Assembly (NCBI RefSeq): GCF_024281235.1
Contig: NZ_JAHWXY010000001.1
Location: 1,116,001-1,180,000 of the forward strand
Origin: Shinella daejeonensis
GTDB lineage: Bacteria; Pseudomonadota; Alphaproteobacteria; Rhizobiales; Rhizobiaceae
Direction: 5' to 3'
Length of the DNA: 64,000 nt
The position numbers and the translations under genes are program-made. This document shows, in pieces, positions 52,931 through 63,767 of the stretch. The notes beneath the pieces were generated by a model. It saw only the letters and a program-made list of their open reading frames with translations. It made no database searches and was not told the DNA's origin. How positions within the stretch are numbered: position 1 is the stretch's first letter; each line of letters starts with the position of its first letter.

Positions 52931-53713
52931 TCATCGCCGCCTGGCCAGCACCGAGCGGAACAGGATGACCGCGAAACCGGCGAGTAGTGTCACCGTGATG
53001 AACAGAAAGGCCGCGGCAGCGATGGCCGGGCTGATGTTTTCCCGGATGCTGGAGAACATCTGCCGCGCCAGCGTTCGCTGGTTGGGTCCGGCGACGAAGA
53101 GCGTCAGCACCACCTCGTCGAGCGACGTGGCGAAAGCAAGCACCGCGCCGGACAATACGCCCGGCAGCGCGAGCGGCAGCGTCACACGGCGGAAGACCGT
53201 GACCGGAGGGGCTCCAAGGCTTTGCGCGGCAAGCTCCACCCGGCGATCGATACCGGCCAGCGCGCCGCTCACGCTCACCACCACGAAAGGCACGGCGACG
53301 ACCGTATGGGCGACGATGACCCCGGCATAGCTGTTGATCAGGCCGACGCGAGCGAGCAGAACCTGCATGCCGACGCCGAGCACCACGGCCGGCACGACCA
53401 TCGGCAGGAGAAACATCGTTCGAAAGAAGCCGCGAAAGCGCAGCAGCCGGTTGCGCAGCCCGAGCGCGGCGGCGGTCCCCAGAACGGTGGCGAGGATCGT
53501 CGCCCCCGATCCGATGATCAGGCTGTTGATGATCGCCCGCCGCCAGGCGTCGGCGGTGAAAAGCTCCGTGAACCAGCGCATCGACCAGGAAGGCATCGGA
53601 TAAGTGAGGATCACGCTCGACGTGAAGGCAAGCGGCAGGATGGCGATCAGCGGCACCACCAGGAACAGGATCGCCAGCAACGCGAAAACCAGTTTGGAAA
53701 GCCTCAGCACCAT
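52931..53713 (-). CDS. polyamine-type ABC transporter permease 2 (PotC-like)
   Basis: This 260-aa permease has six helices and the EAA loop (LAAQSLGAPPVTVFRRVTLPLALPGVLSGA) typical of spermidine/putrescine and related iron(III)/amine transporters. It follows permease 1 by 3 bp with AAGGAG before its ATG. It ends the transporter operon on the minus strand. Confidence 0.88.
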   Translation of the reverse strand: MVLRLSKLVFALLAILFLVVPLIAILPLAFTSSVILTYPMPSWSMRWFTELFTADAWRRAIINSLIIGSGATILATVLGTAAALGLRNRLLRFRGFFRTMFLLPMVVPAVVLGVGMQVLLARVGLINSYAGVIVAHTVVAVPFVVVSVSGALAGIDRRVELAAQSLGAPPVTVFRRVTLPLALPGVLSGAVLAFATSLDEVVLTLFVAGPNQRTLARQMFSSIRENISPAIAAAAFLFITVTLLAGFAVILFRSVLARRR

Positions 53714-53716
53714 CGC

Positions 53717-54895
53717 TTAGCTCCTTCCCGGCTCTTCGGCGGAAAGCCGCGCGTAGACGCTGTAGAGAAGGAGCGTGGCGACGAGCAGCACGACACCGAG
53801 CGCACCGGCCATCCCCCAGTTCGCCGAGCCGATGGCGTAGAAGGCGATGATCGAGCTGATCATCTGGTCACCCGGCCCGCCGATCAGCGCCGGCGTGATA
53901 TAGTAGCCGATGGCCGAGATGAAGACGAGCAGGCTGCCGGAGGCGACGCCCCTCAGGCTGAGCGGCAGCAGCACGCGCAGGAAGGCCCTGAACGGGTGGG
54001 CGCCAAGCGATGCCGCGGCCGGCATCAGGTTCCCCGGAATGGTGATCAGCGTGCTGTAGATCGGCAACACCATGAAGGGCAGCAGCACATGGGTCATGGC
54101 GATGATGACGCCGGTGCGGTTGAAGATGAGCGGCACCGGCCCGTCCGTCAGCCGCAGCCATTGCAGGAGATCGTTGATGAGTCCCTGCTCCTGAAGCAGG
54201 ATGAACCAGGCGGCCGTGCGCACCAGAAGCGACGTCCACAACGGCAGCAGCACCGCCGCCAGCATCAGATCGCGCTTCCAGCCGCCAAGCGAGGCTGCGA
54301 TCATCGCATAGGGATAGCCGATGCAGATGCAGGCCAGGGTCACCAGCGCCGAGATCCAGAAGGTCCGCACCAGAATGACCCGGTTGACCGACTCGTCGGG
54401 CGGAAGATGCTCGATTGCGCCCTGGGCATCGCGCCCGAGATCGACCGCCGCAAGAAGGTTGCGATCGGTGAGCGGCGACAGGGCGTTGGCGATGGCGAGC
54501 CAGAATTCCGGTTTTTGCCAGCGCTTGTCGATGGAGACGAGGTCCGCCGGCGGATCGTCCGTATCGGCAAGTGCGGTGGTGGTCTTCGACATCAGCGTGC
54601 GGAAGCCGGACTGGGCGCTGTTGAGGCGGCGCACCATGTCGCCGAGCGCCTGTGCGTCGTCGACGGCCCTCAGATCCTCCATCAGCGCGGCCTGCATCGC
54701 CGGGCTGGGCGGCGACAGGCGATCCCATGCCGCCAGCACATCGGCGCTGTGCGGCAGAAGACGCAGCACCGCGGTATCGGAAACCGATTGCGACACCATG
54801 CTGAAGAGCGGCCAGACGAAGAAGGCGACGAGGAAGGCGAAGAGCGGCGCCAGCAGCAGCAGCGACCGTCCGGTTCGCGTCGGGGAGCCGCTCAT
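53717..54895 (-). CDS. polyamine-type ABC transporter permease 1 (PotB-like), with long periplasmic insert
   Basis: This 392-aa permease is longer than typical PotB (about 280) because about 110 residues (roughly 45-160) lie between the first and second helices, containing ALMEDLRAVDDAQALGDMVRRLNSAQSG. The remaining helices and the EAA loop (AAASLGAHPFRAFLRVLLPLSLRGV) are normal. The insert is a known feature of some spermidine/putrescine permeases. ATGA overlap with the ATPase gene fixes the start at 54895. Confidence 0.86.
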   Translation of the reverse strand: MSGSPTRTGRSLLLLAPLFAFLVAFFVWPLFSMVSQSVSDTAVLRLLPHSADVLAAWDRLSPPSPAMQAALMEDLRAVDDAQALGDMVRRLNSAQSGFRTLMSKTTTALADTDDPPADLVSIDKRWQKPEFWLAIANALSPLTDRNLLAAVDLGRDAQGAIEHLPPDESVNRVILVRTFWISALVTLACICIGYPYAMIAASLGGWKRDLMLAAVLLPLWTSLLVRTAAWFILLQEQGLINDLLQWLRLTDGPVPLIFNRTGVIIAMTHVLLPFMVLPIYSTLITIPGNLMPAAASLGAHPFRAFLRVLLPLSLRGVASGSLLVFISAIGYYITPALIGGPGDQMISSIIAFYAIGSANWGMAGALGVVLLVATLLLYSVYARLSAEEPGRS

Positions 54896-55959
54896 GGACG
54901 GATGATCCGGCAATCGCCCGAGGAGAAGGCCGCATAGACCTTCGTGCCCGGGGGAAATTCGCGTGAGCGCCGGTCCAGCTTGGCGACCAGCGGATGGACG
55001 GCGTTCTGCAATTGCACGCGTAGATGATCGCCCTGATAGACGGAATCGGCGACCTCCGTTTCGAGACAATTGCGCTGCTCCGCCGGCGTCTCGGCAAGCT
55101 GGATGCGCTCCGGCCTGATGGAGAGATGGACAGGGCCGCCGGGCGCAAGGTCGCCCGTCACCGCCGAGACGATGCGCAGGCCGGACGCCAGCCGCACCGT
55201 GGCTTCCTGCCCCTCCACTGCTTCCACGACACCTTCCACCAGGTTGGTCTCGCCGATGAATTCGGCGACGAAGCGGGTCCCCGGCTCGTCATAGACCTGC
55301 CGGGGCGTGCCGATCTGCTCGATCCTGCCCTTGTTGAAGACCGCGACCCGGTCGGACATGGTGAGCGCTTCCGACTGGTCGTGCGTGACGAAGACGATGG
55401 TCAGGCCGAGACGGCGATGCAGGTCGCGGATATCGAGTTGCATCTGCTCACGCAACTGCTTGTCGAGGGCGCCGAGGGGCTCGTCCATCAGCACGACGCG
55501 CGGCTCGAACACCAGCGCACGGGCAAGCGCCACACGCTGCTGCTGGCCGCCGGAGAGCTGGGAGGGCCGCCGGTCGGCCAGCGCCGAAAGCTGAACCATA
55601 TCGAGAGCACGGCGGACCCGCTCGGCGGTGTCCGCCCTGGCGACGCCGCGCATCTGCAAGGGAAAGGCGATATTCTCGCCGACGGTCATATGGGGAAACA
55701 GCGCATAGCTCTGGAACACCACCCCCATGTCGCGCCTGTGTGTCGGCACGTCGTTGACCGCGCTGCCGTCGACGAGGATCGCGCCGGACGTCGGGCTCTC
55801 GAAGCCGGCGAGCATCATCAGCAATGTCGTCTTGCCGGATCCGGACGGCCCGAGCAGGCTGACGAATTCCCCTTTTGCGATGGAAAGATCGAGGTTTTCC
55901 ACCACGCAGAGCGCGCCGAAAAATTTCGTGATGCGGTCGAACCGGATGAACTCTGCCAC
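54892..55959 (-). CDS. polyamine-type ABC transporter ATP-binding protein (PotA-like)
   Basis: This 355-aa ATPase has Walker A GPSGSGKTT, signature LSGGQQQRVALARAL, Walker B VVLMDEPLGALDKQLR, switch His FVTHD, and a C-terminal TOBE_2 regulatory domain (about 240-350) as in PotA/FbpC. It starts with GTG 6 bp after AAGGAG. It is second in the operon, after the binding protein and a stem-loop. Confidence 0.88.
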   Translation of the reverse strand: MAEFIRFDRITKFFGALCVVENLDLSIAKGEFVSLLGPSGSGKTTLLMMLAGFESPTSGAILVDGSAVNDVPTHRRDMGVVFQSYALFPHMTVGENIAFPLQMRGVARADTAERVRRALDMVQLSALADRRPSQLSGGQQQRVALARALVFEPRVVLMDEPLGALDKQLREQMQLDIRDLHRRLGLTIVFVTHDQSEALTMSDRVAVFNKGRIEQIGTPRQVYDEPGTRFVAEFIGETNLVEGVVEAVEGQEATVRLASGLRIVSAVTGDLAPGGPVHLSIRPERIQLAETPAEQRNCLETEVADSVYQGDHLRVQLQNAVHPLVAKLDRRSREFPPGTKVYAAFSSGDCRIIRP

Positions 55960-56079: not shown

Positions 56080-57129
56080 TTACTGGGCGAGCCAGGCGTT
56101 GAAGCGTTGCGTCAGCGCCTCGGTGTTATCGATCCAGAAATCCGTATCCAGCGATATCGCCTCCGGCAGGTTGGCGGGATCGGTCGGCAGATCCTTGGCC
56201 AACTCCGGCGGAACCATCGCCGCCGCTTCCTTGACCGGCAGGCCGTAAGCCACATATTCCGGCAGCTTCGCCTGATGCTCCGGCTGGCTTGCGAAAGCGA
56301 TGAAGTCCGCGCCGGCCTCCTTGTTTTCGGCATCCTTCAGGATCACCCAGCTATCGACCGCGTAGATGCTGCCCGGCCAGACGACCTTGAGGTTGCGCCC
56401 CTCGCTGCGGTTGATGCCGGTGATGCGTCCATTGTAGGCCGAGGCCATGGCGACTTCGCCGGAAGCAAGGAACTGCAACGGCTGGGCGCCGGATTCCCAC
56501 CAGACGATATTCGGCTTCAGTTCATCGAGTTTCTTGAAGGCGCGCTCGACACCGTCGTCACTGGCCAGGACGTCATAGACCTCGTCCGTCGAGACCCCGT
56601 CGGCCATCAGCGCGAATTCAAGCGTATATTTCGGGCCCTTGCGCAGGGAACGCTTGCCCGGGAACTTTTCGATATTCCAGAAGTCCGCCCATGAAGCCGG
56701 ACCTTCCTCCATCTTGTCACCGTCATAGGCGATGGCCGTCGACCAGACGATGGTGCCGACGCCGCATTCGCTGACGGCGGAAGGCATGAACCTGTCCTTG
56801 TCGAGCTTGTCCCAGTCGATCTTCTCGAAAAGACCGTCCGCACAGCCGAGCGCCAGTTCCTCCGCCTCGACCTGGACGACGTCCCAGTTGGGCGCGCCGG
56901 CCTTCACCTTGGCCTGTAGAACGCCGATGCCGCCGTCCCAGGCTTCGTCGAGCAACGGCTTGCCGGACTTGGCGAGATAGGGTTCGAAATAGATCTTGCG
57001 TTGCGCATCCTGATAGCTGCCGCCCCAGGAGACGACGGTCAGGTCGCGCGCAAGCGACGGGACCGCAAGCCCCGCCGCGAGCGCCACGACGGCGGTGGCC
57101 AGCAGGCCCGATTTCAACGATTTCTGCAT
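56080..57129 (-). CDS. polyamine-type ABC transporter, substrate-binding protein (PotD-like)
   Basis: This 349-aa periplasmic protein of family 1/8 has a signal peptide ending VPSLARD (near 28). LTVVSWGGSYQDAQRKIYFEPYLAKSG is the conserved beginning of the spermidine/putrescine/opine group. The AAGGGGGG ribosome site is 7 bp before ATG 57129; the ATG six bases earlier is too close. It is preceded by a promoter region with a GntR operator. The substrate is probably a cationic amine or amino acid, unproven. Confidence 0.88.
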   Translation of the reverse strand: MQKSLKSGLLATAVVALAAGLAVPSLARDLTVVSWGGSYQDAQRKIYFEPYLAKSGKPLLDEAWDGGIGVLQAKVKAGAPNWDVVQVEAEELALGCADGLFEKIDWDKLDKDRFMPSAVSECGVGTIVWSTAIAYDGDKMEEGPASWADFWNIEKFPGKRSLRKGPKYTLEFALMADGVSTDEVYDVLASDDGVERAFKKLDELKPNIVWWESGAQPLQFLASGEVAMASAYNGRITGINRSEGRNLKVVWPGSIYAVDSWVILKDAENKEAGADFIAFASQPEHQAKLPEYVAYGLPVKEAAAMVPPELAKDLPTDPANLPEAISLDTDFWIDNTEALTQRFNAWLAQ

Positions 57130-57290
57130 AGGCATTCCCCCCTTTAGAGATATTTTGCAGGCCGGCTTTCATGCCGGCCCGATCCATTTGCGACCGCTCC
57201 TCCAGCGGTCGCTCACTCCATCGCCTTGGAACGGAAGACCTTGCTTCCGGCTGGCTGGTCGCCCATTCTTGCGGGACGGCCTTGACTGGA

Positions 57291-57302
57291 ATGATGCATC
57301 AT
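57291..57302. promoter_or_regulatory. GntR-type operator before the transporter operon
   Basis: ATGATGCATCAT is a perfect 12-bp palindrome. On the minus strand TTGACC (57313-57318) is a -35 candidate about 10 bp ahead, so the operator would lie in the promoter spacer. The core TGATGCAT is shared with the site at 58902 and nearly with 58118. It is 162 bp upstream of the binding-protein start; the 57130-57357 gap holds no gene. Confidence 0.72.
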
Positions 57303-57357
57303 AAAAACGTCCGGTCAACGGGATTTTTCAAATTCCGGGTCTTGCCGCTTGCGCGGT

Positions 57358-58098
57358 TCAGACATGCTGGCCGCCGTTGATGTGGATTTCCGCCCCGTTG
57401 ATGTAGGATGACTGTTCCGTGCACAGGAAATGAATGGTCTCGGCGACTTCACGCGGCTCGCCCAACCGGCCCATCGGGACTTCCGCCGCCACCAGTTCGT
57501 CTGTTCCGGGAGACAGGATGGAGGTCTGGATCTCGCCCGGCGCGATGGCGTTGGCCCTCACCCCGTGTTTTCCGAACTCATGCGCCATCTCCCGCGTCAG
57601 CGCCGAAAGCCCCGCCTTGGAGGCGGCATAGGCGACGCCCGCGAAAGGATGCACGCGCGAGCCGGCAATCGAGGTGACATTGACGATCGAGCCCTTCGCC
57701 GCCTTGAGTTCCGGCAGGAGCGCCCGCGCGATCAGCGCCGTGGAGATGAGATTGACGTTCAGAACCTGCGTCCAGACGTCGGCGGTGGTCGCGCCCACCC
57801 CGAGCCGCTCCCGGTCCGGCCCCTTGGGCGAAATGCCGGCATTGTTGACCAGCGCATGGAGCCGGCCGTGCGGCAGGCGCTCGCGCACCGTCGCGGCGAG
57901 ACGGTCGATCTGCGCAAGATCGGAAAGATTGGCCTGGATATGGCTTTCGCGCGCCGACGGCCAGGCGCATTCCTCCGAAAACGGCTGGCGCGACACCGTG
58001 AGGATACGCCAGCCTTTCGCCTGGAAGTGCTTGACGGTCGCATGGCCGATCCCCCGACTCGCGCCCGTCAGCAGCATGTAACGGCGTTCTTCTGTCAT
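57358..58098 (-). CDS. SDR family oxidoreductase
   Basis: This 246-aa classical SDR has the cofactor loop TGASRGIGHATV, NNAGIS near 85, Ser in VNVTSIAG and YAASK with active-site Tyr/Lys. The end (SSYINGAEIHINGGQHV) is normal. Its ribosome site is AGAGG; a GntR operator lies 20 bp before its start. It sits between the GntR gene and the transporter operon on the same strand, so it probably oxidises or reduces the transported compound or its product. Confidence 0.88.
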   Translation of the reverse strand: MTEERRYMLLTGASRGIGHATVKHFQAKGWRILTVSRQPFSEECAWPSARESHIQANLSDLAQIDRLAATVRERLPHGRLHALVNNAGISPKGPDRERLGVGATTADVWTQVLNVNLISTALIARALLPELKAAKGSIVNVTSIAGSRVHPFAGVAYAASKAGLSALTREMAHEFGKHGVRANAIAPGEIQTSILSPGTDELVAAEVPMGRLGEPREVAETIHFLCTEQSSYINGAEIHINGGQHV

Positions 58099-58117
58099 GC
58101 GAGCCTCTCGTCCGATG

Positions 58118-58128
58118 CTTGATACATC
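58118..58128. promoter_or_regulatory. GntR-type operator before the SDR gene
   Basis: CTTGATACATC differs by one base from the site at 58902-58912. It lies 20 bp upstream of the SDR start (minus strand), on top of or just downstream of its promoter. Confidence 0.68.
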
Positions 58129-58188
58129 GTAATTATCCGAAGCTGAAATGCAAGCCGCTTCAAAAGCCGGCGTCGAAGATTGTCGCAG

Positions 58189-58869
58189 TCACCCCCGGGC
58201 GGACCTTGGTTCCCGGCTACGCTCCACCTTTTCCAGGATCGGCTTGCCGCCGAGCAGGATGTCATCGACGATCGCCATCGAGGCCGCCGCCGGATCGTGC
58301 CGCTTCAGCGCCTCGACCACCGGATAATGATGATCGATCATCGCCCGGCCGCCCCCGAGATAGGAGTCGGCGATAAGCGGGCCCATTTGCAGCCAGAGCC
58401 GGCGCAGGATGTTGTTGAGCACCGGCAGACCGGCAATCTTCGGCAGCATGAAATGGAAAGCCTGATTGAGTTCCGTGCCCTTCAGCCGGTCTCCAGCGGC
58501 GATTGCGGCCTCGTTTTCCCGGAGAATGGTCTCCAGAGCCTCGATATCCGCCCGCGTCGCCTCCTGGGCGGCCGTCTCGGCCGCCAGCCCCTCCAGCCGC
58601 ACGCGGATGGCGCGGATTTCCCGGTAGCGGCTCTCGCTCATCGCCGGAATGCGGATGTCGCGCGGCGAACGGAAGATGATCGCTTCGTCATTGGCAAGCT
58701 TCAGGATGGCGTCGCGGATCGGCGTGACGCTGGTGCCGAACTGCTCCGCGAGTTCGCGGATCTTCAATCGGTCGTGCGGCTGGAAACGTCCCTGCATGAG
58801 TGCGTCGCACAGCGCCCCATAAACGGCGCTGCTGAGGCTTTCATGATCCAGAGTGGGAAATTCAGGCAT
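58189..58869 (-). CDS. GntR family transcriptional regulator (FadR subfamily)
   Basis: This 226-aa regulator has the winged HTH (SSAVYGALCDALMQGRFQPHDRLKIRELAEQFGTSVTPIRDAILKLANDEAI) at residues 12-65 and the helical FCD ligand domain to 220, with metal/ligand histidines in NQAFHFMLPK and IDHHYPVVEAL. No clear ribosome site. It sits between the SDR gene and the divergent kinase gene. Three matching palindromes in its surroundings point to it as the controller of the whole 56-61 kb module. Confidence 0.9.
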   Translation of the reverse strand: MPEFPTLDHESLSSAVYGALCDALMQGRFQPHDRLKIRELAEQFGTSVTPIRDAILKLANDEAIIFRSPRDIRIPAMSESRYREIRAIRVRLEGLAAETAAQEATRADIEALETILRENEAAIAAGDRLKGTELNQAFHFMLPKIAGLPVLNNILRRLWLQMGPLIADSYLGGGRAMIDHHYPVVEALKRHDPAAASMAIVDDILLGGKPILEKVERSREPRSARG

Positions 58870-58901
58870 GGAACGGGCTCAAAAAATCGGCTAACAACAT
58901 A

Positions 58902-58912
58902 CTTGATGCATC
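58902..58912. promoter_or_regulatory. GntR-type operator in the divergent gntR-kinase promoter region
   Basis: CTTGATGCATC contains the palindrome GATGCATC and matches the sites at 58118 and 57291. It is 33 bp upstream of the GntR start and 117 bp before the kinase gene on the other strand, consistent with autoregulation and joint control. Confidence 0.7.
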
Positions 58913-59028
58913 TTTTTTTGCGCGCTTTCAAGTAAAGCCGGCGGCAAATGGCATCGCATGGCGCCTGAAAGGGAAATCGGCCGGGAGGACACCGCGCGAG
59001 CGGGCCGATCCGGGAAGACGGAGCAGGA

Positions 59029-60078
59029 ATGAGCGAGGATACCGCCACCCGGAAGACAGCGGACGCAATGTCCGCATCCTGGAGCGAAACGACACTGGAT
59101 GACGCCCTGGCCGCCGTCGCGAAGTTTTACGGCCTTGCGGGCGAACTGAATCGCCTGTCCAGCGAGCGCGACGAGACTTTCCTGCTTTCCGCCGCGAACG
59201 GCAGCGCCTTCACCCTGAAAATCGCCAATCCGGCGGAAGATCCGGCCGCACTCGATTTTCAGGACGGCGCGCTGCTGCATCTGGAGCAGGCGGCCCCCGC
59301 CGTTCCCGTACCCCGGCTCGTGCGCACGCTCGATGGCGCCACAAGCCGGACGTTGGACACGATGGACGGACCGCGCATCATGCGCCTCCTCACGTTCCTG
59401 GAAGGCGAGATGCAATATCGCACCCCGGCCGACCCGGCGCAAAGCCGCAATATCGGCGGCGCGCTCGCGGCGCTGGGGCTGGGTCTTGCGGGCTATGCCG
59501 GGCGTCCCCCTTCGGGCAAGCTGATGTGGGACATCTCGCACACGCTCGATCTTGCCGCCTTCCTCGAATATGTCGCCCCCGGGCGGCGCGGACGGGTGGA
59601 AGCCGTGCTGGAGGAATACGCCCGGGCACTGCCGCTGATCGGCGCTCTGGAACGCCGGCAGATCATCCATAACGATTTCAACCCGCACAATATCCTCATG
59701 TCGCCGCAAGCGACGACGGAGGTGGTCGGCATCATCGACTTCGGCGACATGGTTCATGCACCGCTCGTCAACGATGTCGCGGTCGGGCTTTCCTACCATC
59801 TGGCGACGCCCGACTGGGCCGCGCGGGCCGGCGGCTTTCTCGAAGGCTTTCTCGCCGGGCGGGCTCTGCTGCCGCTCGAACTGGAGCTTCTGCCGTTGCT
59901 CACCCGCGCCCGGCTCGCCATGTCGGTGATCATCGCGGAATGGCGCTCCGCCCGTTTCCCCGGGAACCGCAGCTATATCATGCGCAATCACGTCGCCGCC
60001 TGGACCGGCTTGCAACATATTGCCGACCTTACTCCCGCCGGGCTGCAACAGCTCGCGCACAACCCCGCAGAGGCTTGA
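59029..60078 (+). CDS. APH-fold kinase (hydroxylysine kinase-like phosphotransferase)
   Basis: This 349-aa aminoglycoside-phosphotransferase/choline-kinase-fold protein has the catalytic loop IIHNDFNPHNILM (H-x-D-x4-N) and the metal-binding DFGD of GIIDFGDMVHAP. Paired with a class III aminotransferase-like gene 3 bp downstream, it matches the known pairing of hydroxylysine kinase (AGPHD1-type) with phosphohydroxylysine phospho-lyase. Start 59029 (GGAGCAGGA directly ahead) gives 13 residues before a second possible ATG at 59068. Alternatives: ethanolamine or another amino-alcohol kinase. Confidence 0.8.
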   Translation: MSEDTATRKTADAMSASWSETTLDDALAAVAKFYGLAGELNRLSSERDETFLLSAANGSAFTLKIANPAEDPAALDFQDGALLHLEQAAPAVPVPRLVRTLDGATSRTLDTMDGPRIMRLLTFLEGEMQYRTPADPAQSRNIGGALAALGLGLAGYAGRPPSGKLMWDISHTLDLAAFLEYVAPGRRGRVEAVLEEYARALPLIGALERRQIIHNDFNPHNILMSPQATTEVVGIIDFGDMVHAPLVNDVAVGLSYHLATPDWAARAGGFLEGFLAGRALLPLELELLPLLTRARLAMSVIIAEWRSARFPGNRSYIMRNHVAAWTGLQHIADLTPAGLQQLAHNPAEA

Positions 60079-60081
60079 ACC

Positions 60082-61404
60082 ATGTCGATGGTGAACGCAT
60101 TCACGAATGAGGATTTCGAACAGCTCGACGCCACGGAAAAGGCGCTGATCGCGCGCCGCGAGAAGGTGCTCGGCCCCGCCTACCGGCTCTTTTACGAAAA
60201 GCCGCTGCATCTCGTGCGCGGCGAAGGCGTCTGGCTCTACGACGCCGCCGGCGAGCGCTATCTCGACGCCTACAACAATGTCGCCTCGCTCGGCCATTGC
60301 CACCCTCGCGTGGTGGCGGCGATCACCGGGCAGACGGCGGTGCTCAATACCCACACCCGTTACCTTCACGAAGGCATCGTCGACTATGCGGAAGCGCTGA
60401 CGTCGACGTTCCCGGCCCCGCTCAGCCAGGCGATGTTCACCTGCACCGGCAGCGAGGCCAACGATCTGGCGCTGCGCATCGCGCGGCATGTGACGGGCGG
60501 CACCGGCATCATCTCCACCCGTCTCGCCTACCATGGGGTAACCGGCGCGGTTGCGGAATTCTCGCCCTCCCTCGGCGAGGCCGTGCCGCTCGGGGCGCAT
60601 GTGCGAACCGTCGCAGCCCCGGACAGCTACCGCTTTCCCGCCAGTGAGATGATGGAGAAATTCGGCCGTGACGTGCGTCGGGCGATCGCCGACCTGAAAC
60701 GGCACGGCATCAAGCCCGCCATGCTGATCGTCGACACGATCTTCTCCAGCGACGGCATCTTCGCCGGCCCCAAAGGCTTCCTGCAACCGGCCGTCGATGC
60801 CATCCACGAAGCCGGCGGCCTGTTCGTCGCCGATGAGGTGCAACCCGGTTTCGGCCGAACGGGCGAGACGATGTGGGGCTTCGAGCGCCACGGCGTGTCC
60901 CCCGACATGGTGACGATCGGCAAGCCGATGGGCAACGGCTATCCGATGGCCGGCATCGTCGTGCAGCCGGAAATCATCGCGGAATTCGGCGCGAAGACGC
61001 GCTACTTCAACACCTTCGGCGGCAATCCCGTCGCCGCGGCGGCCGGAAAGGCCGTGCTCGATGCGATCCGCGAGGAGGGCCTGCGCGAGAACGCGCTTGC
61101 CGTCGGAAACCACATGATGGACAGCCTGCGGACGCTTGCCGACCGCCATCCCGCCATCGGCGACATTCGCGGTTCGGGCCTGTTCGTCGGCGTCGAGATC
61201 GTCGCCGACCGCGGGGAAAAGCGTCCGGACGCAGCCCTCACTGCCCGCATCGTCAACGGGCTGCGCGAGCGCCGGGTGCTGATCAGCGCCTCCGGCCCGT
61301 TCGCCAACGTCCTGAAGATCCGCCCGCCCCTCGTCTTTTCCCGCGAGAACGTCGACACGCTCGTTACCGCGCTCGATGACGTATTGACCCGGGGAAAAGG
61401 CTGA
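60082..61404 (+). CDS. class III aminotransferase-fold enzyme, probable phospho-lyase (AGXT2L/PHYKPL-like)
   Basis: This 440-aa PLP enzyme has the PLP-phosphate site FTCTGSEANDLALRIAR, the ring-stacking segment FVADEVQPGFGRTG and the Schiff-base Lys in TIGKPMGNGYP (near 281). Class III members with DEVQxGFGR next to an APH-type kinase are ethanolamine-phosphate or 5-phosphohydroxylysine phospho-lyases rather than true transaminases. This would convert the kinase product to an aldehyde, ammonia and phosphate. A conventional omega-aminotransferase cannot be excluded. It starts 3 bp after the kinase stop. Confidence 0.82.
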   Translation: MSMVNAFTNEDFEQLDATEKALIARREKVLGPAYRLFYEKPLHLVRGEGVWLYDAAGERYLDAYNNVASLGHCHPRVVAAITGQTAVLNTHTRYLHEGIVDYAEALTSTFPAPLSQAMFTCTGSEANDLALRIARHVTGGTGIISTRLAYHGVTGAVAEFSPSLGEAVPLGAHVRTVAAPDSYRFPASEMMEKFGRDVRRAIADLKRHGIKPAMLIVDTIFSSDGIFAGPKGFLQPAVDAIHEAGGLFVADEVQPGFGRTGETMWGFERHGVSPDMVTIGKPMGNGYPMAGIVVQPEIIAEFGAKTRYFNTFGGNPVAAAAGKAVLDAIREEGLRENALAVGNHMMDSLRTLADRHPAIGDIRGSGLFVGVEIVADRGEKRPDAALTARIVNGLRERRVLISASGPFANVLKIRPPLVFSRENVDTLVTALDDVLTRGKG

Positions 61405-61480: not shown

Positions 61481-61945
61481 CTATTCGGAGGCGGAAACGG
61501 CCTGGTGCAGATCCGCCCGCTCCAGGATCTCCACAAAGCGCTTGTGCGCACGCGGCGGCATGTCCGCTTCGAGAAAATCGTCCGGCAGGGCCGCGTCGCC
61601 GACACGCACCACCATGACCATTCCCATCCCGAAATGCGGCGAGCACTTGATCCCGTAGAAGCCCGGCTGATCGAAGGTGACCTCGATCTCCTCGTCGATC
61701 TTCCCCTTGAAGCTTTCGGCGCCATCCGGCGTCATCTCCGGAATGGAAGCCGCGTTATGGCTGCGGCTGCCGACCTTGAACCGCAGCGTATCGCCCGGCC
61801 GCAGCGTCACGAAGTCCGGCTCGAACACCATGCTGCCGTGCTCGCCGCGATTGAGCATCCTCACTTCGATCGTCCCGGCGATTGCCGGAAACATGGTGGA
61901 AAGGAGGAAAAAGGATGCGATGAAAAACGATCTCAAGACCATCAT
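61481..61945 (-). CDS. pseudoazurin (type 1 copper protein), copy 2
   Basis: This 154-aa protein has a signal peptide ending FPAIAG (near 24) and a cupredoxin domain. His63 in SRSHNAASIP, Cys101, His104 and Met109 in KCSPHFGMGM are the copper ligands. It differs clearly from copy 1 (about half the residues identical by eye). Its start overlaps the stop of the upstream ABC ATPase gene by 4 bp, so it belongs to the metal-chelate uptake operon. No FNR-type box was seen near it. Confidence 0.92.
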   Translation of the reverse strand: MMVLRSFFIASFFLLSTMFPAIAGTIEVRMLNRGEHGSMVFEPDFVTLRPGDTLRFKVGSRSHNAASIPEMTPDGAESFKGKIDEEIEVTFDQPGFYGIKCSPHFGMGMVMVVRVGDAALPDDFLEADMPPRAHKRFVEILERADLHQAVSASE

Positions 61946-62742
61946 GCCGGCTCCCGGATAGTAAAACGGCGCGCCGTCGTCGACGGCCGCGCATAGCGGA
62001 TGAAACAGGACCCGTCCGCCTCGATCTCCACCCGGGCGTCGACCCGGAAGATGTCGGCGAGCAGATGGTCGGTCAGGATTTCGGGCGGGCGGCCAAGCGC
62101 GGCCAGCCGTCCCTCATGAAGAACCGCGACGCGGTCGCAAAACAGCGCGGCATGGTTGAGGTCGTGCAGGGCGGCGACGACAGTAAGGTTGCGGGAGCGC
62201 ACGAGATCGAGAATGCCGACCTGATGCTCGATATCGAGATGGTTGGTGGGTTCGTCGAGGATCAGCAGGCGCGGCTCCTGCGCCAGCGCCCGCGCGATAT
62301 GGATCCGCTGGCGCTCGCCGCCCGAAAGGGTCTGCCACGGCCGGTCGGCGAAGGCCCGCATGTCGACATCGTCCAATGCGCGATCGATAATGGCTTCGTC
62401 CTCGGCCGACCACGGGGAAAGCGCGCTCAGATGCGGCGTCCGCCCAAGCTCCACCGCCTGGCGCACATTGAGCCTTTCGCCGGTCTCCGCCTGCTGCTCG
62501 ACGAAGGCGACCTTCCGGGCGACATCGCGCCGTGGCAGCCGCGCGATATCGCGGCCCTCCAGAAGCACGCTGCCTGTGACGGGCCGGCGCAGGCCGGCGA
62601 TCATCGACAGCAGGCTCGTCTTGCCGGAACCATTCGGGCCGACGATACCGAGAAATTCACCGGGCATGATCTCCAGCGAGACATCGTCGACGATCGTCCG
62701 GCGGCCGGCCTTCCAGCCAAGATTGCGCGCTGCCAGTTTCAT
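61942..62742 (-). CDS. FecE/HmuV/BtuD-type ABC transporter ATP-binding protein
   Basis: This 266-aa ATPase of iron-siderophore, haem or cobalamin uptake has Walker A GPNGSGKTS, signature LSGGERQRIHIARAL, Walker B LLILDEPTNHLD and switch His ALHD. The ATG at 62742 overlaps the permease stop (ATGA). The frame is open far upstream but that region is the permease gene in another frame. The ligand is undetermined. Confidence 0.9.
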   Translation of the reverse strand: MKLAARNLGWKAGRRTIVDDVSLEIMPGEFLGIVGPNGSGKTSLLSMIAGLRRPVTGSVLLEGRDIARLPRRDVARKVAFVEQQAETGERLNVRQAVELGRTPHLSALSPWSAEDEAIIDRALDDVDMRAFADRPWQTLSGGERQRIHIARALAQEPRLLILDEPTNHLDIEHQVGILDLVRSRNLTVVAALHDLNHAALFCDRVAVLHEGRLAALGRPPEILTDHLLADIFRVDARVEIEADGSCFIRYARPSTTARRFTIREPA

Positions 62743-63767
62743 CGCGTCACCGGCCTTCGGATGAGGATCAGCGCGAAAGCGGGCGCCCCGACAAGCGCCG
62801 TCATCACACCGATCGGCAGGACCTGGCCGGGGATGACGGTGCGCGACAGGATATCCGCGCCGATCATGAAAGCCGCACCTGCGAGCGCCGCTGCCGGCAG
62901 CAGCACGCCGTGACGAACGCCGACGATCAACCGGGCGGCATGCGGAACGACGAGACCGACGAAGCCGATCGAGCCGACGATGCTCACCATGGTGGCGGTC
63001 ATGAGCGCGGTGACCGCGATCATCGTCGCATAGACGCGACGAACGGGCACGCCGAGCGAAGCCGCCGATTGCGGGCCGAAGGCGAAGGCGTCGAGCGAGC
63101 GCGCATAGAGCCAGCAGATCGCAAGCCCCCCGAGCGCCACCGGCAGCGCCAGAAAGACATCCGGCCAGCGCACGCCGGAAAGGTTGCCCAGCAGCCAGAA
63201 CATGATGCCGCGCGCCTGATCGGCGGTCGCCGATTTCGTCACGACGAAGGACGTGAGCGCATTGAACAGTTGCGACCCGGCAATCCCCGCAAGGATGATG
63301 GCGACAGGGCCGCGCCCGGATCGCAAGGCCAGCAGCGCCACCAGACCGAAGGCGACCAGCGCGCCTGCGAACGCGCCTGCCGACAGCGAGAAAAAGCCGC
63401 CGCCGAAACCGAGGATCGCCACCGCGACGGCGCCGCTCGACGCCCCGGCGGATATGCCGAGGATATAGGGATCGGCAAGCGCGTTGCGCAGCAGCGATTG
63501 CAGCACCACCCCGCAAACCGCAAGCGACGCACCGCAGGCGGCCGCCACCAGCGCCCGGGCGATGCGATAGTTCCAGACGATGCCCGCGTCGATGGGATCG
63601 AGGTCATGGCCGGCATCCCACAGCCGGTTCGCCACGGTCTTGACAACCGTGGCGAGCGGGATCGCGGTCTCGCCGATCGCCGCACCGGACGCCAGCGCGA
63701 CGAACAGCACCGCCAGCGCTGTCACGCCGCCGGCGACGACCCGCAGCAACGCAGGCGAAAACCTCAC
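62739..63767 (-). CDS. FecCD-family ABC transporter permease
   Basis: This 342-aa permease has about ten helices. RIARALVAAACGASLAVCGVVLQSLLRNALADP is the conserved FecCD block with the coupling GxxxQxxxRNPLA-type motif, and SIGFVGLVVPHAARL is the second block. It starts with ATG overlapping the binding-protein stop. It probably forms a homodimer with the single ATPase gene downstream. Confidence 0.92.
   Translation of the reverse strand: MRFSPALLRVVAGGVTALAVLFVALASGAAIGETAIPLATVVKTVANRLWDAGHDLDPIDAGIVWNYRIARALVAAACGASLAVCGVVLQSLLRNALADPYILGISAGASSGAVAVAILGFGGGFFSLSAGAFAGALVAFGLVALLALRSGRGPVAIILAGIAGSQLFNALTSFVVTKSATADQARGIMFWLLGNLSGVRWPDVFLALPVALGGLAICWLYARSLDAFAFGPQSAASLGVPVRRVYATMIAVTALMTATMVSIVGSIGFVGLVVPHAARLIVGVRHGVLLPAAALAGAAFMIGADILSRTVIPGQVLPIGVMTALVGAPAFALILIRRPVTR

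What the first reader, a model, noticed from the sequence alone, without database searches (positions are those of the whole stretch)
57130..61404. GntR regulon with three matching palindromes controlling a kinase, phospholyase-like, SDR and polyamine-type transporter module
Seen directly: ATGATGCATCAT (57291), CTTGATACATC (58118) and CTTGATGCATC (58902) lie in the promoter regions of the transporter, SDR and gntR/kinase genes. Known: an APH-fold kinase next to an AGXT2L-type PLP enzyme is the arrangement of hydroxylysine (or amino-alcohol) catabolism: phosphorylation, then phosphate elimination to an aldehyde. Inferred: the transporter imports a cationic hydroxy amine or amino acid, the kinase and phospholyase open it, and the SDR acts on a side or end product. 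The combination with a PotABCD-type importer and SDR under one GntR repressor is not one I know as described.
Basis: partly seen in the sequence, partly recalled or inferred. Interest (0 to 1): 0.75.

Follow-up and report, generated by a model that had tools for sequence, protein, structure and literature searches.

The report
GntR regulon for GABA-like hydroxyamino acid
A group of genes in a soil bacterium related to nodule bacteria appears to import and break down an unidentified GABA-like amino acid under one repressor whose DNA switch is the same in distantly related bacteria, which makes the unknown food compound something that can now be tested.

Summary
The three palindromes are at the stated places. 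In the window alone they are barely above chance, but the core TGATGCATCA, with up to one mismatch, lies upstream of a module gene in 66 of 67 homologous loci (62 of 63 without repeat fetches), from alpha-, beta- and gammaproteobacteria. The site in the gntR/kinase gap is the conserved one; the importer site is poorly kept in close relatives. So this is a real GntR (FCD-type) regulon.

The PLP enzyme is nearest to solved phospholyases by a wide margin. The importer's 'polyamine' label is not favoured: the binding protein is nearest to Atu4243, a GABA-binding protein (199 bits; a chain titled spermidine/putrescine-binding, 8jv1, 166; PotD 62; PotF 32) and keeps the GABA-site Arg and Asp.

In six homologous modules an omega-transaminase is found and no kinase/phospholyase in the stretch; others hold both. 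Companion genes in relatives include gabD, lhgO and an LDH/MDH-like gene.

Best reading: catabolism of a vicinal hydroxy- (or oxo-) omega-amino acid by reduction, phosphorylation and elimination to a semialdehyde. 5-aminolevulinate and 4-amino-3-hydroxybutyrate lead; hydroxylysine is possible. The substrate is inferred, not shown.

The parts
52931..53713 (-). ABC importer permease 2 (PotC/PotI-like)
   Evidence: PF00528, 61.5 bits; PotC model 145.4 bits, under its cut-off 326; found with the module in the relatives
53717..54895 (-). ABC importer permease 1 (PotB/PotH-like); start taken at the ATG at 54895
   Evidence: PF00528; PotH model 155.5 bits, under its cut-off 489
54892..55959 (-). ABC importer ATPase
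   Evidence: TIGR01187 potA subfamily, 389.7 bits, above cut-off 355.6
56080..57135 (-). periplasmic binding protein nearest to GABA-binding ones; Arg237 and Asp261 align with the GABA-site Arg and Asp
   Evidence: PDB: 4eq7/4euo 199 bits, 8jv1 166, PotD 62, PotF 32; GABA-site residues from PMC12999171 passages; pocket comparison
57291..57302 (.). operator 1, perfect palindrome ATGATGCATCAT upstream of the importer genes; overlaps the -10 of the only promoter-like match in 57100-59100 (weak: 0.4 expected by chance)
   Evidence: poorly kept in close relatives
57358..58098 (-). short-chain dehydrogenase/reductase; YxxxK active site, invariant Arg37 after strand 2 (NADP-type by a recalled rule)
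   Evidence: PF13561/PF00106; alignment of 19 homologues
58118..58129 (.). operator 2, imperfect site CTTGATACATCG upstream of the SDR gene
58189..58869 (-). GntR/FCD transcriptional regulator
   Evidence: PF00392 + PF07729; PRK11414 95.8 bits (cut-off 225) and phnR_burk 64.8 (271.5), so no named family
58902..58913 (.). operator 3, CTTGATGCATCT in the divergent gntR / kinase gap; the best conserved site
   Evidence: GATGCATCA invariant in the upstream alignment of 10 loci
59029..60078 (+). APH-fold small-molecule kinase (HNDFNPHN, IDFGD)
   Evidence: PF01636 110.6 bits; motifs; best NCBIfam model PRK06148, 192.6 bits, matched over its first third
60082..61404 (+). class-III PLP enzyme of the phospholyase (AGXT2L/ETNPPL) kind
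   Evidence: PDB: 5g4i 393 bits, 6tor 361 bits, next best 193; GKPMGNG, DEVQ.GF.R and YNNV motifs

Best explanation
This is an accessory catabolic regulon for a vicinal hydroxy- (or oxo-) omega-amino acid of the GABA / 5-aminovalerate type, HOOC-(CH2)n-CH(OH) or C(=O)-CH2-NH2. The FCD-GntR protein binds TGATGCATCA in front of the gntR/kinase and SDR genes and, in this genome, the importer, and, like most of its family (recalled), probably represses until the substrate or an intermediate is present. The GABA-type ABC importer brings the substrate in. The SDR probably reduces the keto form to the amino alcohol with NADPH. The APH-fold kinase phosphorylates the hydroxyl. The phospholyase then releases phosphate and ammonia, leaving a semialdehyde (succinic or glutaric) for a GabD-type dehydrogenase encoded elsewhere in this genome. 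In relatives an omega-transaminase, in some with an aldehyde dehydrogenase and a 2-hydroxyacid oxidase or dehydrogenase, stands in for or beside the kinase/phospholyase step. Shown: the gene families, the operator and its conservation, the linked partner genes, the kinship of the binding protein. Inferred: substrate, reaction order, direction of the SDR, repression.
For: Operator in 66 of 67 loci, perfect in 11 of 11 Vogesella/Aquitalea/Crenobacter loci and in Rahnella, Pseudomonas and Haematobacter plasmids. PLP enzyme nearest to phospholyases. Binding protein nearest to Atu4243 and GABA-sensor proteins; Arg237 kept in 55 of 56 and Asp261 in 55 of 56 aligned rows (some rows are one genome twice, one row is a neighbouring less related binding protein). 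Transaminase-type L128 and L131, mixed L144-L146 and kinase/phospholyase-type modules share all eight pocket letters WYIWYRDY; a second pocket kind, FNFWYRDY, is likewise shared by transaminase-type L153 and kinase/phospholyase-type L075, L120 and L078. Partner genes: Rahnella cluster with a MocR-family regulator, gabT, gabD (both above a GABA/SSADH model cut-off) and the module, with operators before the binding protein, SDR and gntR; L120 the same set, no gntR in the stretch; SSADH-like gene (under the model cut-offs) right after the phospholyase in R. leguminosarum L030, which also has operators; SDR-gabD-LhgO-like run in L115; lhgO in Phaeobacter and beside the SDR in L129; LDH/MDH-like gene (under the cut-offs) after the SDR in L144-L146. 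Own genome has GabD homologues (71% and 62% to the L115 gabD) and no close homologue of the L128 transaminase (best 42%). PMC5320631 notes gabT3 + COG2334 kinase in the GabR regulon of Bordetella avium (passages).
Against: No ligand, activity or expression was measured. Four of the eight GABA-site residues differ in the window protein (T to Y, F to I, F to W, W to Y), so the ligand is not simply GABA. A chain titled spermidine/putrescine-binding protein, 8jv1, scores 166 bits, between the GABA and opine proteins, and 4eq7 itself bears 'Polyamine' in its title; in 8jv1 the Arg is kept and Glu stands at the Asp place. Pseudomonas GABA-binding proteins can also bind ethylenediamine and weakly spermidine (PMC11113362), so a diamine is not excluded. 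The two pocket kinds differ at three of eight places, so the two lineages might bind different ligands. The importer operator is poorly kept in close relatives. The SDR is not always present: no hit in L030 or L044, none in the genome of L148 at E 1e-60; it occurs without the module in Rhizobium and Sinorhizobium plasmids and at 57-58% identity in other contexts, so it is no marker of the pathway. The Rahnella MocR-family regulator passes the PdxR model cut-off, not GabR's. CsiD and LhgO gave no hit in this genome (the LhgO search had no positive control), which weakens a five-carbon end route here. The phospholyases of operator-bearing modules do not form one clade. The AlphaFold model of the binding protein was poor (mean pLDDT 67.2) and was not used.
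Confidence: 0.55

Rival explanations
1. Five-carbon version: the substrate is 5-aminolevulinate. The SDR reduces the 4-keto group to 5-amino-4-hydroxyvalerate, kinase and phospholyase give glutarate semialdehyde; in relatives the transaminase and an aldehyde dehydrogenase give 2-hydroxyglutarate, which LhgO oxidises to 2-oxoglutarate.
For: Gives the SDR a job (keto reduction, NADP-type Arg37 invariant in 19 aligned homologues) and explains lhgO beside binding protein, SDR, transaminase and aldehyde dehydrogenase in Phaeobacter and beside the SDR in L129. Reduce-phosphorylate-eliminate is the logic of levulinate catabolism (recalled, Rand 2017, not held).
Against: No hit for lhgO or CsiD in this genome. 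Rahnella and L120 carry gabT/gabD, equally fitting four carbons. No paper on this route was found in the one search made for it.
Confidence: 0.2
2. Four-carbon version: the substrate is 4-amino-3-hydroxybutyrate (GABOB); kinase and phospholyase give succinic semialdehyde, which GabD turns to succinate; the transaminase route gives malate.
For: Binding protein nearest to a GABA-binding one; gabT/gabD clusters; SSADH-like gene after the phospholyase in L030; GabD homologues in this genome; no further genes needed.
Against: Leaves the SDR without a clear role and does not explain a true LhgO.
Confidence: 0.2
3. One reading: 5-hydroxylysine, phosphorylated and split to 2-aminoadipate semialdehyde.
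For: Kinase plus phospholyase is the human arrangement (recalled, Veiga-da-Cunha 2012, not held; in the reference list of PMC8154272). Hydroxylysine also bears a carboxylate and a terminal amine, so the binding protein does not exclude it.
Against: Companion genes in relatives are those of GABA-like acids; no aminoadipate gene is among the features listed for the annotated clusters, whose gene tables are incomplete.
Confidence: 0.12
4. A simple amino alcohol or amino ketone (ethanolamine, 1-amino-2-propanol, aminoacetone), as in the classical amino-alcohol kinase / phospho-lyase pathway (recalled).
For: Same enzyme pair; the nearest solved phospholyases include ethanolamine-phosphate phospho-lyase 6tor; the SDR could reduce aminoacetone.
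Against: The conserved Arg237, which pairs with the carboxylate in GABA-binding proteins (recalled), would have no partner; gabD and lhgO neighbours unexplained.
Confidence: 0.12
5. A hydroxylated diamine such as 2-hydroxyputrescine, in which the transaminase opens one end and kinase/phospholyase the other.
For: Transaminase and kinase/phospholyase occur together in L144-L146 and, with the SDR, in Paracoccus L178; Pseudomonas GABA-binding proteins also bind ethylenediamine; 8jv1, titled spermidine/putrescine-binding, is a fairly close relative of the binding protein (166 bits).
Against: Far from PotD and PotF; pocket Arg; many modules show no transaminase in the stretch.
Confidence: 0.1

Closest known systems
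AGXT2L-type phospholyases (ethanolamine-phosphate phospho-lyase 6tor; bacterial phospholyase 5g4i) with hydroxylysine / amino-alcohol kinases
   Same: APH-fold kinase next to a class-III PLP enzyme; 393 and 361 bits to the solved phospholyases against 193 for the next enzyme
   Different: Here under an FCD-GntR with its own operator, with an SDR and a GABA-type importer; omega-transaminase as partner or stand-in in relatives
GabR (MocR) GABA regulons with gbtABCD importer and gabT3 + COG2334 kinase (PMC5320631, passages seen)
   Same: kinase + class-III enzyme tied to GABA transport and gabT/gabD; Burkholderia L043 has kinase, phospholyase, a MocR-family regulator and a related importer
   Different: Different regulator family and operator; SDR present here; that paper assigns no reaction to the kinase pair in the passages seen
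Atu4243 / Pf622 GABA-binding proteins
   Same: closest solved relatives of the binding protein; Arg, Asp, Trp and Tyr of the GABA site kept at 237, 261, 37 and 297
   Different: four of the eight GABA-site residues changed in the window protein
Levulinate (lva) pathway of Pseudomonas putida (recalled, not read)
   Same: keto reduction, phosphorylation by an APH-fold kinase, phosphate elimination
   Different: acts on CoA thioesters; here a PLP enzyme would eliminate phosphate with the amine

Membership tests
AGXT2L-type class-III phospholyase | closer to solved phospholyases than to transaminases | tested here: met
   393 and 361 bits against 193 for the next enzyme
AGXT2L-type class-III phospholyase | GKPMGNG and NNV motifs, seen in both solved phospholyases | tested here: met
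   present in the window protein and in 5g4i and 6tor; GKPMGNG in 76 of 78 and YNNV in 77 of 78 homologous stretches over 400 bits, module members and others
AGXT2L-type class-III phospholyase | releases phosphate and ammonia, no transamination | not testable with these tools
   needs enzyme assay
5-hydroxylysine catabolism (kinase + phospholyase) | APH-fold kinase beside the phospholyase | tested here: met
5-hydroxylysine catabolism (kinase + phospholyase) | substrate 5-hydroxylysine; aminoadipate-semialdehyde genes linked | tested here: inconclusive
   none among the listed features of annotated clusters, whose tables are incomplete; substrate not testable
PotABCD polyamine importer | gene architecture with a PotA-type ATPase | tested here: met
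   TIGR01187 389.7 bits, cut-off 355.6
PotABCD polyamine importer | binding protein passes the PotD or PotF model | tested here: not met
   PotD model 64 bits, cut-off 582; PotF 33.9, cut-off 636. PDB: Atu4243 199, 8jv1 (titled spermidine/putrescine-binding) 166, PotD 62, PotF 32
FCD-GntR autoregulated catabolic regulon | GntR+FCD protein with a conserved palindrome upstream of itself and its targets | tested here: met
   the importer site is weakly kept in close relatives
FCD-GntR autoregulated catabolic regulon | repression released by a pathway metabolite | not testable with these tools
   needs binding and expression tests
Levulinate (lva)-type pathway | CoA ligase and acyl-CoA dehydrogenase-like eliminating enzyme (definition recalled) | tested here: not met
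   neither is among the nine proteins scanned here

The most novel reading that the evidence does not exclude
An undescribed route for using 5-aminolevulinate, the haem precursor, as food: reduction to 5-amino-4-hydroxyvalerate, phosphorylation, and PLP-dependent loss of phosphate and ammonia to glutarate semialdehyde, with a transaminase / 2-hydroxyglutarate branch in relatives, under one GntR protein binding TGATGCATCA.
Probability: 0.2. Interest if true: 0.8.

Novelty: new variant of a known kind. Interest (0 to 1): 0.5.

Why it matters
It turns loose annotations ('aspartate aminotransferase family protein', 'phosphotransferase', a polyamine-like transporter) into one conserved regulon with a defined operator and a short list of substrates. 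An orthologous cluster lies on pSymA of the laboratory strain Sinorhizobium meliloti 1021 (binding protein SMa1755 by position; SMa1761 by annotation and number), so it can be tested at once. It also argues that kinase/phospholyase pairs in soil bacteria may serve GABA-like hydroxy acids and not only ethanolamine or hydroxylysine, and it questions the polyamine label on the importer.

Tried and rejected
A polyamine substrate: set aside as first choice by the binding-protein comparison, though 8jv1 keeps it open. The operator as a window-only chance match: not excluded by the window alone (5 of 100 shuffles), excluded by conservation. Further regulon members in this genome: the other 10 one-mismatch places show no homologue of the module proteins beside them. 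The SDR as a marker of the pathway: rejected; 55-64% homologues in many genomes of the order stand without the module, six of 20 examined loci share an upstream ORF that looks like pdxH by eye, and Rhizobium and Sinorhizobium plasmids carry 79-84% homologues without it. A link to the iron/B12-type transporter beside the module in the window: not supported; its permease has homologues in only two other loci, L010 and L184, both about 40% (which repeats because the ATPase query was out of frame; the ATPase hits are at most 40% identical outside this genome and in most loci fall on the module's own ATPase). Siderophore-type uptake genes do lie near the module in S. meliloti L073 and Pseudomonas L184. 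One origin of the phospholyases: not supported; Neisseriales members group with MocR-linked Burkholderiales ones (bootstrap not settled). Structure model of the binding protein: too poor to use; no fold search was run. Literature: searches listed no paper that I recognised as describing this regulon or catabolism of 5-amino-4-hydroxyvalerate; the library is partial and long lists were seen only in part. PMC4494728 holds none of the operator letters searched for in its main text. Papers were seen only as search listings or passages: PMC12542648, PMC5320631, PMC11113362, PMC12999171, PMC8154272.

Rows dropped before counts: one search left out loci shorter than 3.5 kb, the short genome-search loci L083-L113, L064 and everything from L154 on (so L178, without a promoter-placed site, and L184, with a perfect one, are not counted); also loci whose GntR, kinase or transaminase fell under my score limits or outside the stretch (L074, L115, L120, which carry perfect operators; L147, with a one-mismatch site), and L151/L152, a GntR with a perfect operator but no module genes. 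One search left out repeat fetches, L073, the short L065-L067 (represented by L080-L082) and stretches under 330 bits or 380 residues. One search left out L064 and L030 (other gene order).

Full report
What is there. The window belongs to a 4,657,968-base genome. One genome that the tool calls same-genus (G466) has a contig of the length of the Shinella sp. WSJ-2 contig (L011 / L137, 510,722 bases), so this is probably a Shinella relative; that is my inference. From 52.9 to 61.4 kb lie permease, permease, ATPase, binding protein, SDR and gntR on the minus strand, and kinase and class-III PLP enzyme on the plus strand.

Is the operator real. In the window alone the pattern is at the edge of chance (5 of 100 shuffles). 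In the genome the perfect 12-mer occurs once, at 57291; at up to one mismatch there are 12 places against 1 for the reversed control. A scan of genome contigs with the PLP enzyme gave 63 loci. Most of those from Shinella, Ensifer, Agrobacterium, Rhizobium, Neorhizobium, Ciceribacter and similar genera keep the whole module; Agrobacterium rubi L010 has no importer hit and R. leguminosarum L030 no SDR hit. Eleven loci from Vogesella, Aquitalea and Crenobacter have gntR, kinase and PLP enzyme, ten of them with the SDR, and no binding-protein hit. All 11 have a perfect TGATGCATCA between gntR and the next gene. With further loci added, 66 of 67 modules (62 of 63 without repeat fetches) have a site with up to one mismatch within 300 bp upstream of a module gene, and 47 of 51 perfect sites fall in such stretches. 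The sites are not equally kept. In 35 alphaproteobacterial loci the gntR/kinase gap has a site of up to one mismatch in 34; the SDR/gntR gap has 0-1 mismatch in 9 and 2 in 26; the importer gap has 0-1 mismatch in 2 of 34 (one of them this window), 2 in 18 and 3-4 in 14. In an alignment of ten upstream stretches the invariant run is GATGCATCA. The only promoter-like match between 57100 and 59100 has its -10 hexamer inside operator 1, which fits repression but is weak evidence.

The PLP enzyme. It scores 393 bits against solved phospholyase 5g4i and 361 against ethanolamine-phosphate phospho-lyase 6tor; the next solved enzyme scores 193. GKPMGNG is in both phospholyases and in 76 of 78 homologous stretches; YNNV is in 77 of 78 (6tor reads INNV). 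No activity is shown. The genome holds three more close relatives: two at 58-60% with a kinase beside them and one, 47%, in a 1014-residue frame with a kinase part.

The importer. The binding protein is closest to Atu4243 (4eq7/4euo, 199 bits), then 4i1d (193), GABA-sensor proteins (175, 173), 8jv1, titled spermidine/putrescine-binding (166), and agropine/mannopine-type proteins (164, 154); PotD scores 62 and PotF 32. The PDB title of 4eq7 itself says 'Polyamine'; that Atu4243 binds GABA is stated in PMC12999171, and that 4eq7/4euo are Atu4243 and that its key residues are Arg203 and Asp226 is recalled (Planamente 2012). The GABA site of iGABASnFR2, made from Pf622, is W9, T13, F100, Y102 (F in the parent), W202, R205, D228, Y264 (PMC12999171, passage). 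Through the alignment, read by hand, these map to W37, Y41, I129, W131, Y234, R237, D261 and Y297. So the charged pair, Trp37 and Tyr297 are kept and four residues differ: a GABA-like but not GABA-identical ligand. In 8jv1 the Arg is kept and Glu stands in place of the Asp.

Partner genes. In Rahnella the SDR-kinase-PLP genes follow a MocR-family regulator (above the PdxR model cut-off, not GabR's), gabT, gabD and importer genes, with operators before the binding protein, the SDR and gntR. L120 (unnamed, same phylum) has the same set with operators before binding protein and SDR, but no gntR in the stretch. In R. leguminosarum L030 an SSADH-like gene, under the model cut-offs, follows the PLP enzyme, with operators nearby. 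In L128 and L131 no kinase/PLP pair is found and an omega-transaminase (67% and 63% to the Phaeobacter one, which passes model PRK06105) stands in the importer-SDR-gntR module with perfect or one-mismatch operators. L143, L149, L150 and L153 are also transaminase modules with a site, some on short contigs; L150 adds an aldehyde dehydrogenase, a metallohydrolase and, by eye, what looks like a TRAP transporter. L144-L146 hold transaminase, importer, gntR, kinase, PLP enzyme and SDR together, followed by an LDH/MDH-like gene (under the model cut-offs). Paracoccus L178 has PLP enzyme, annotated phosphotransferase, SDR and transaminase in a row, but no operator in a promoter position. In L115/L153 the SDR is followed by a gabD above its cut-off and an LhgO-like oxidase below its cut-off. 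In Phaeobacter lhgO, binding protein, permeases, ATPase, SDR (54-56%), transaminase and aldehyde dehydrogenase form one run without this operator at a module gene. In L129 an lhgO above its cut-off sits beside the SDR, without the operator.

How it most likely works. If the amine-bearing carbon is next to a hydroxyl, the two enzyme sets make sense: kinase plus phospholyase remove amine and hydroxyl together and leave a semialdehyde; transaminase plus aldehyde dehydrogenase keep the hydroxyl and leave a 2-hydroxy acid, which needs an oxidase or dehydrogenase (LhgO or the LDH/MDH-like protein). The pocket comes in two main kinds, WYIWYRDY and FNFWYRDY, and each kind occurs with both enzyme sets, which argues that the enzyme sets serve one ligand within each lineage; whether the two pocket kinds bind the same ligand is open. 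The SDR, with an invariant NADP-type Arg in 19 of 19 aligned homologues, would supply the hydroxyl from a ketone. With two CH2 groups the compound is 5-aminolevulinate; with one it is GABOB, whose keto form would be unstable. The first explains the SDR and LhgO, the second explains gabD and asks for no other genes. This genome has GabD homologues but gave no CsiD or LhgO hit (the LhgO search had no positive control). I cannot decide between them.

Weak points. All function is inferred. The SDR is missing from some modules and occurs alone in others. The importer site is weakly kept in close relatives. The PLP enzymes of operator-bearing modules are not one clade, so parts have been exchanged. 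GntR homologues of this kind (E up to 1e-48) are rare in even draws: 7 of 398 genomes of the phylum, 9 of 297 of the order and 1 of 385 of the class, each count including this genome.

What is known. In S. meliloti 1021 the binding-protein orthologue is SMa1755: the site listed by PMC12542648 at pSymA 999179, with the number 314 beside it, lies 314 bp from the start at 998865 computed from L072; that 314 is the distance to the start is my reading. SMa1755 and SMa1761 (aminotransferase) are in one regulatory module of that paper with small fold changes (table passage), which is compatible with joint expression but is not evidence for the substrate. PMC5320631 notes a kinase and gabT3 in the GabR regulon of Bordetella avium, which supports the GABA connection. 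No paper on this GntR regulon was recognised in the searches named under Tried and rejected.

Verdict.

Noticed in passing
L119, L122, L123, L124, L125, L127: SDR homologues at about 60% identity lie near an upstream ORF that looks like pdxH by eye in six of 20 loci examined; those aligned share the invariant active-site letters of the module SDR: a housekeeping SDR of unknown reaction, perhaps a reductase of small amino ketones.
   Followed up: partly
L080 (G000:C33:134000-153000) and L081 (G000:C37:130000-149000): Two more kinase + phospholyase pairs in the same genome (58-60% identity), each among ABC-transporter and enolase-superfamily-like genes by eye: probably other vicinal amino-alcohol substrates.
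   Followed up: partly
L082 (G000:C22:254000-273000): A 1014-residue frame whose class-III part is 47% identical to the phospholyase and which has a kinase hit ahead of it, like the fused PRK06148 kind; not scanned itself.
   Followed up: no
L151, L152: A GntR homologue (66% to the Pseudomonas one) with a perfect operator upstream but none of the module genes beside it. Possible capture of the regulator or an orphan autoregulated gene.
   Followed up: no
L150 985-6768: Transaminase-type module with a metallohydrolase and a TRAP-like transporter by eye where the ABC importer would be, suggesting uptake of a blocked or cyclic form of the same substrate.
   Followed up: no
L030 7806-8637: R. leguminosarum locus without an SDR hit has five near or perfect operator matches between importer and kinase genes, two of them overlapping.
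   Followed up: no
L073 1-3614, L184 1-4288, window 61942-63767: Siderophore/B12-type uptake genes lie near the module in the window, in S. meliloti and in Pseudomonas mandelii, but the window's permease has homologues in only two other fetched loci, so this is probably coincidence.
   Followed up: partly
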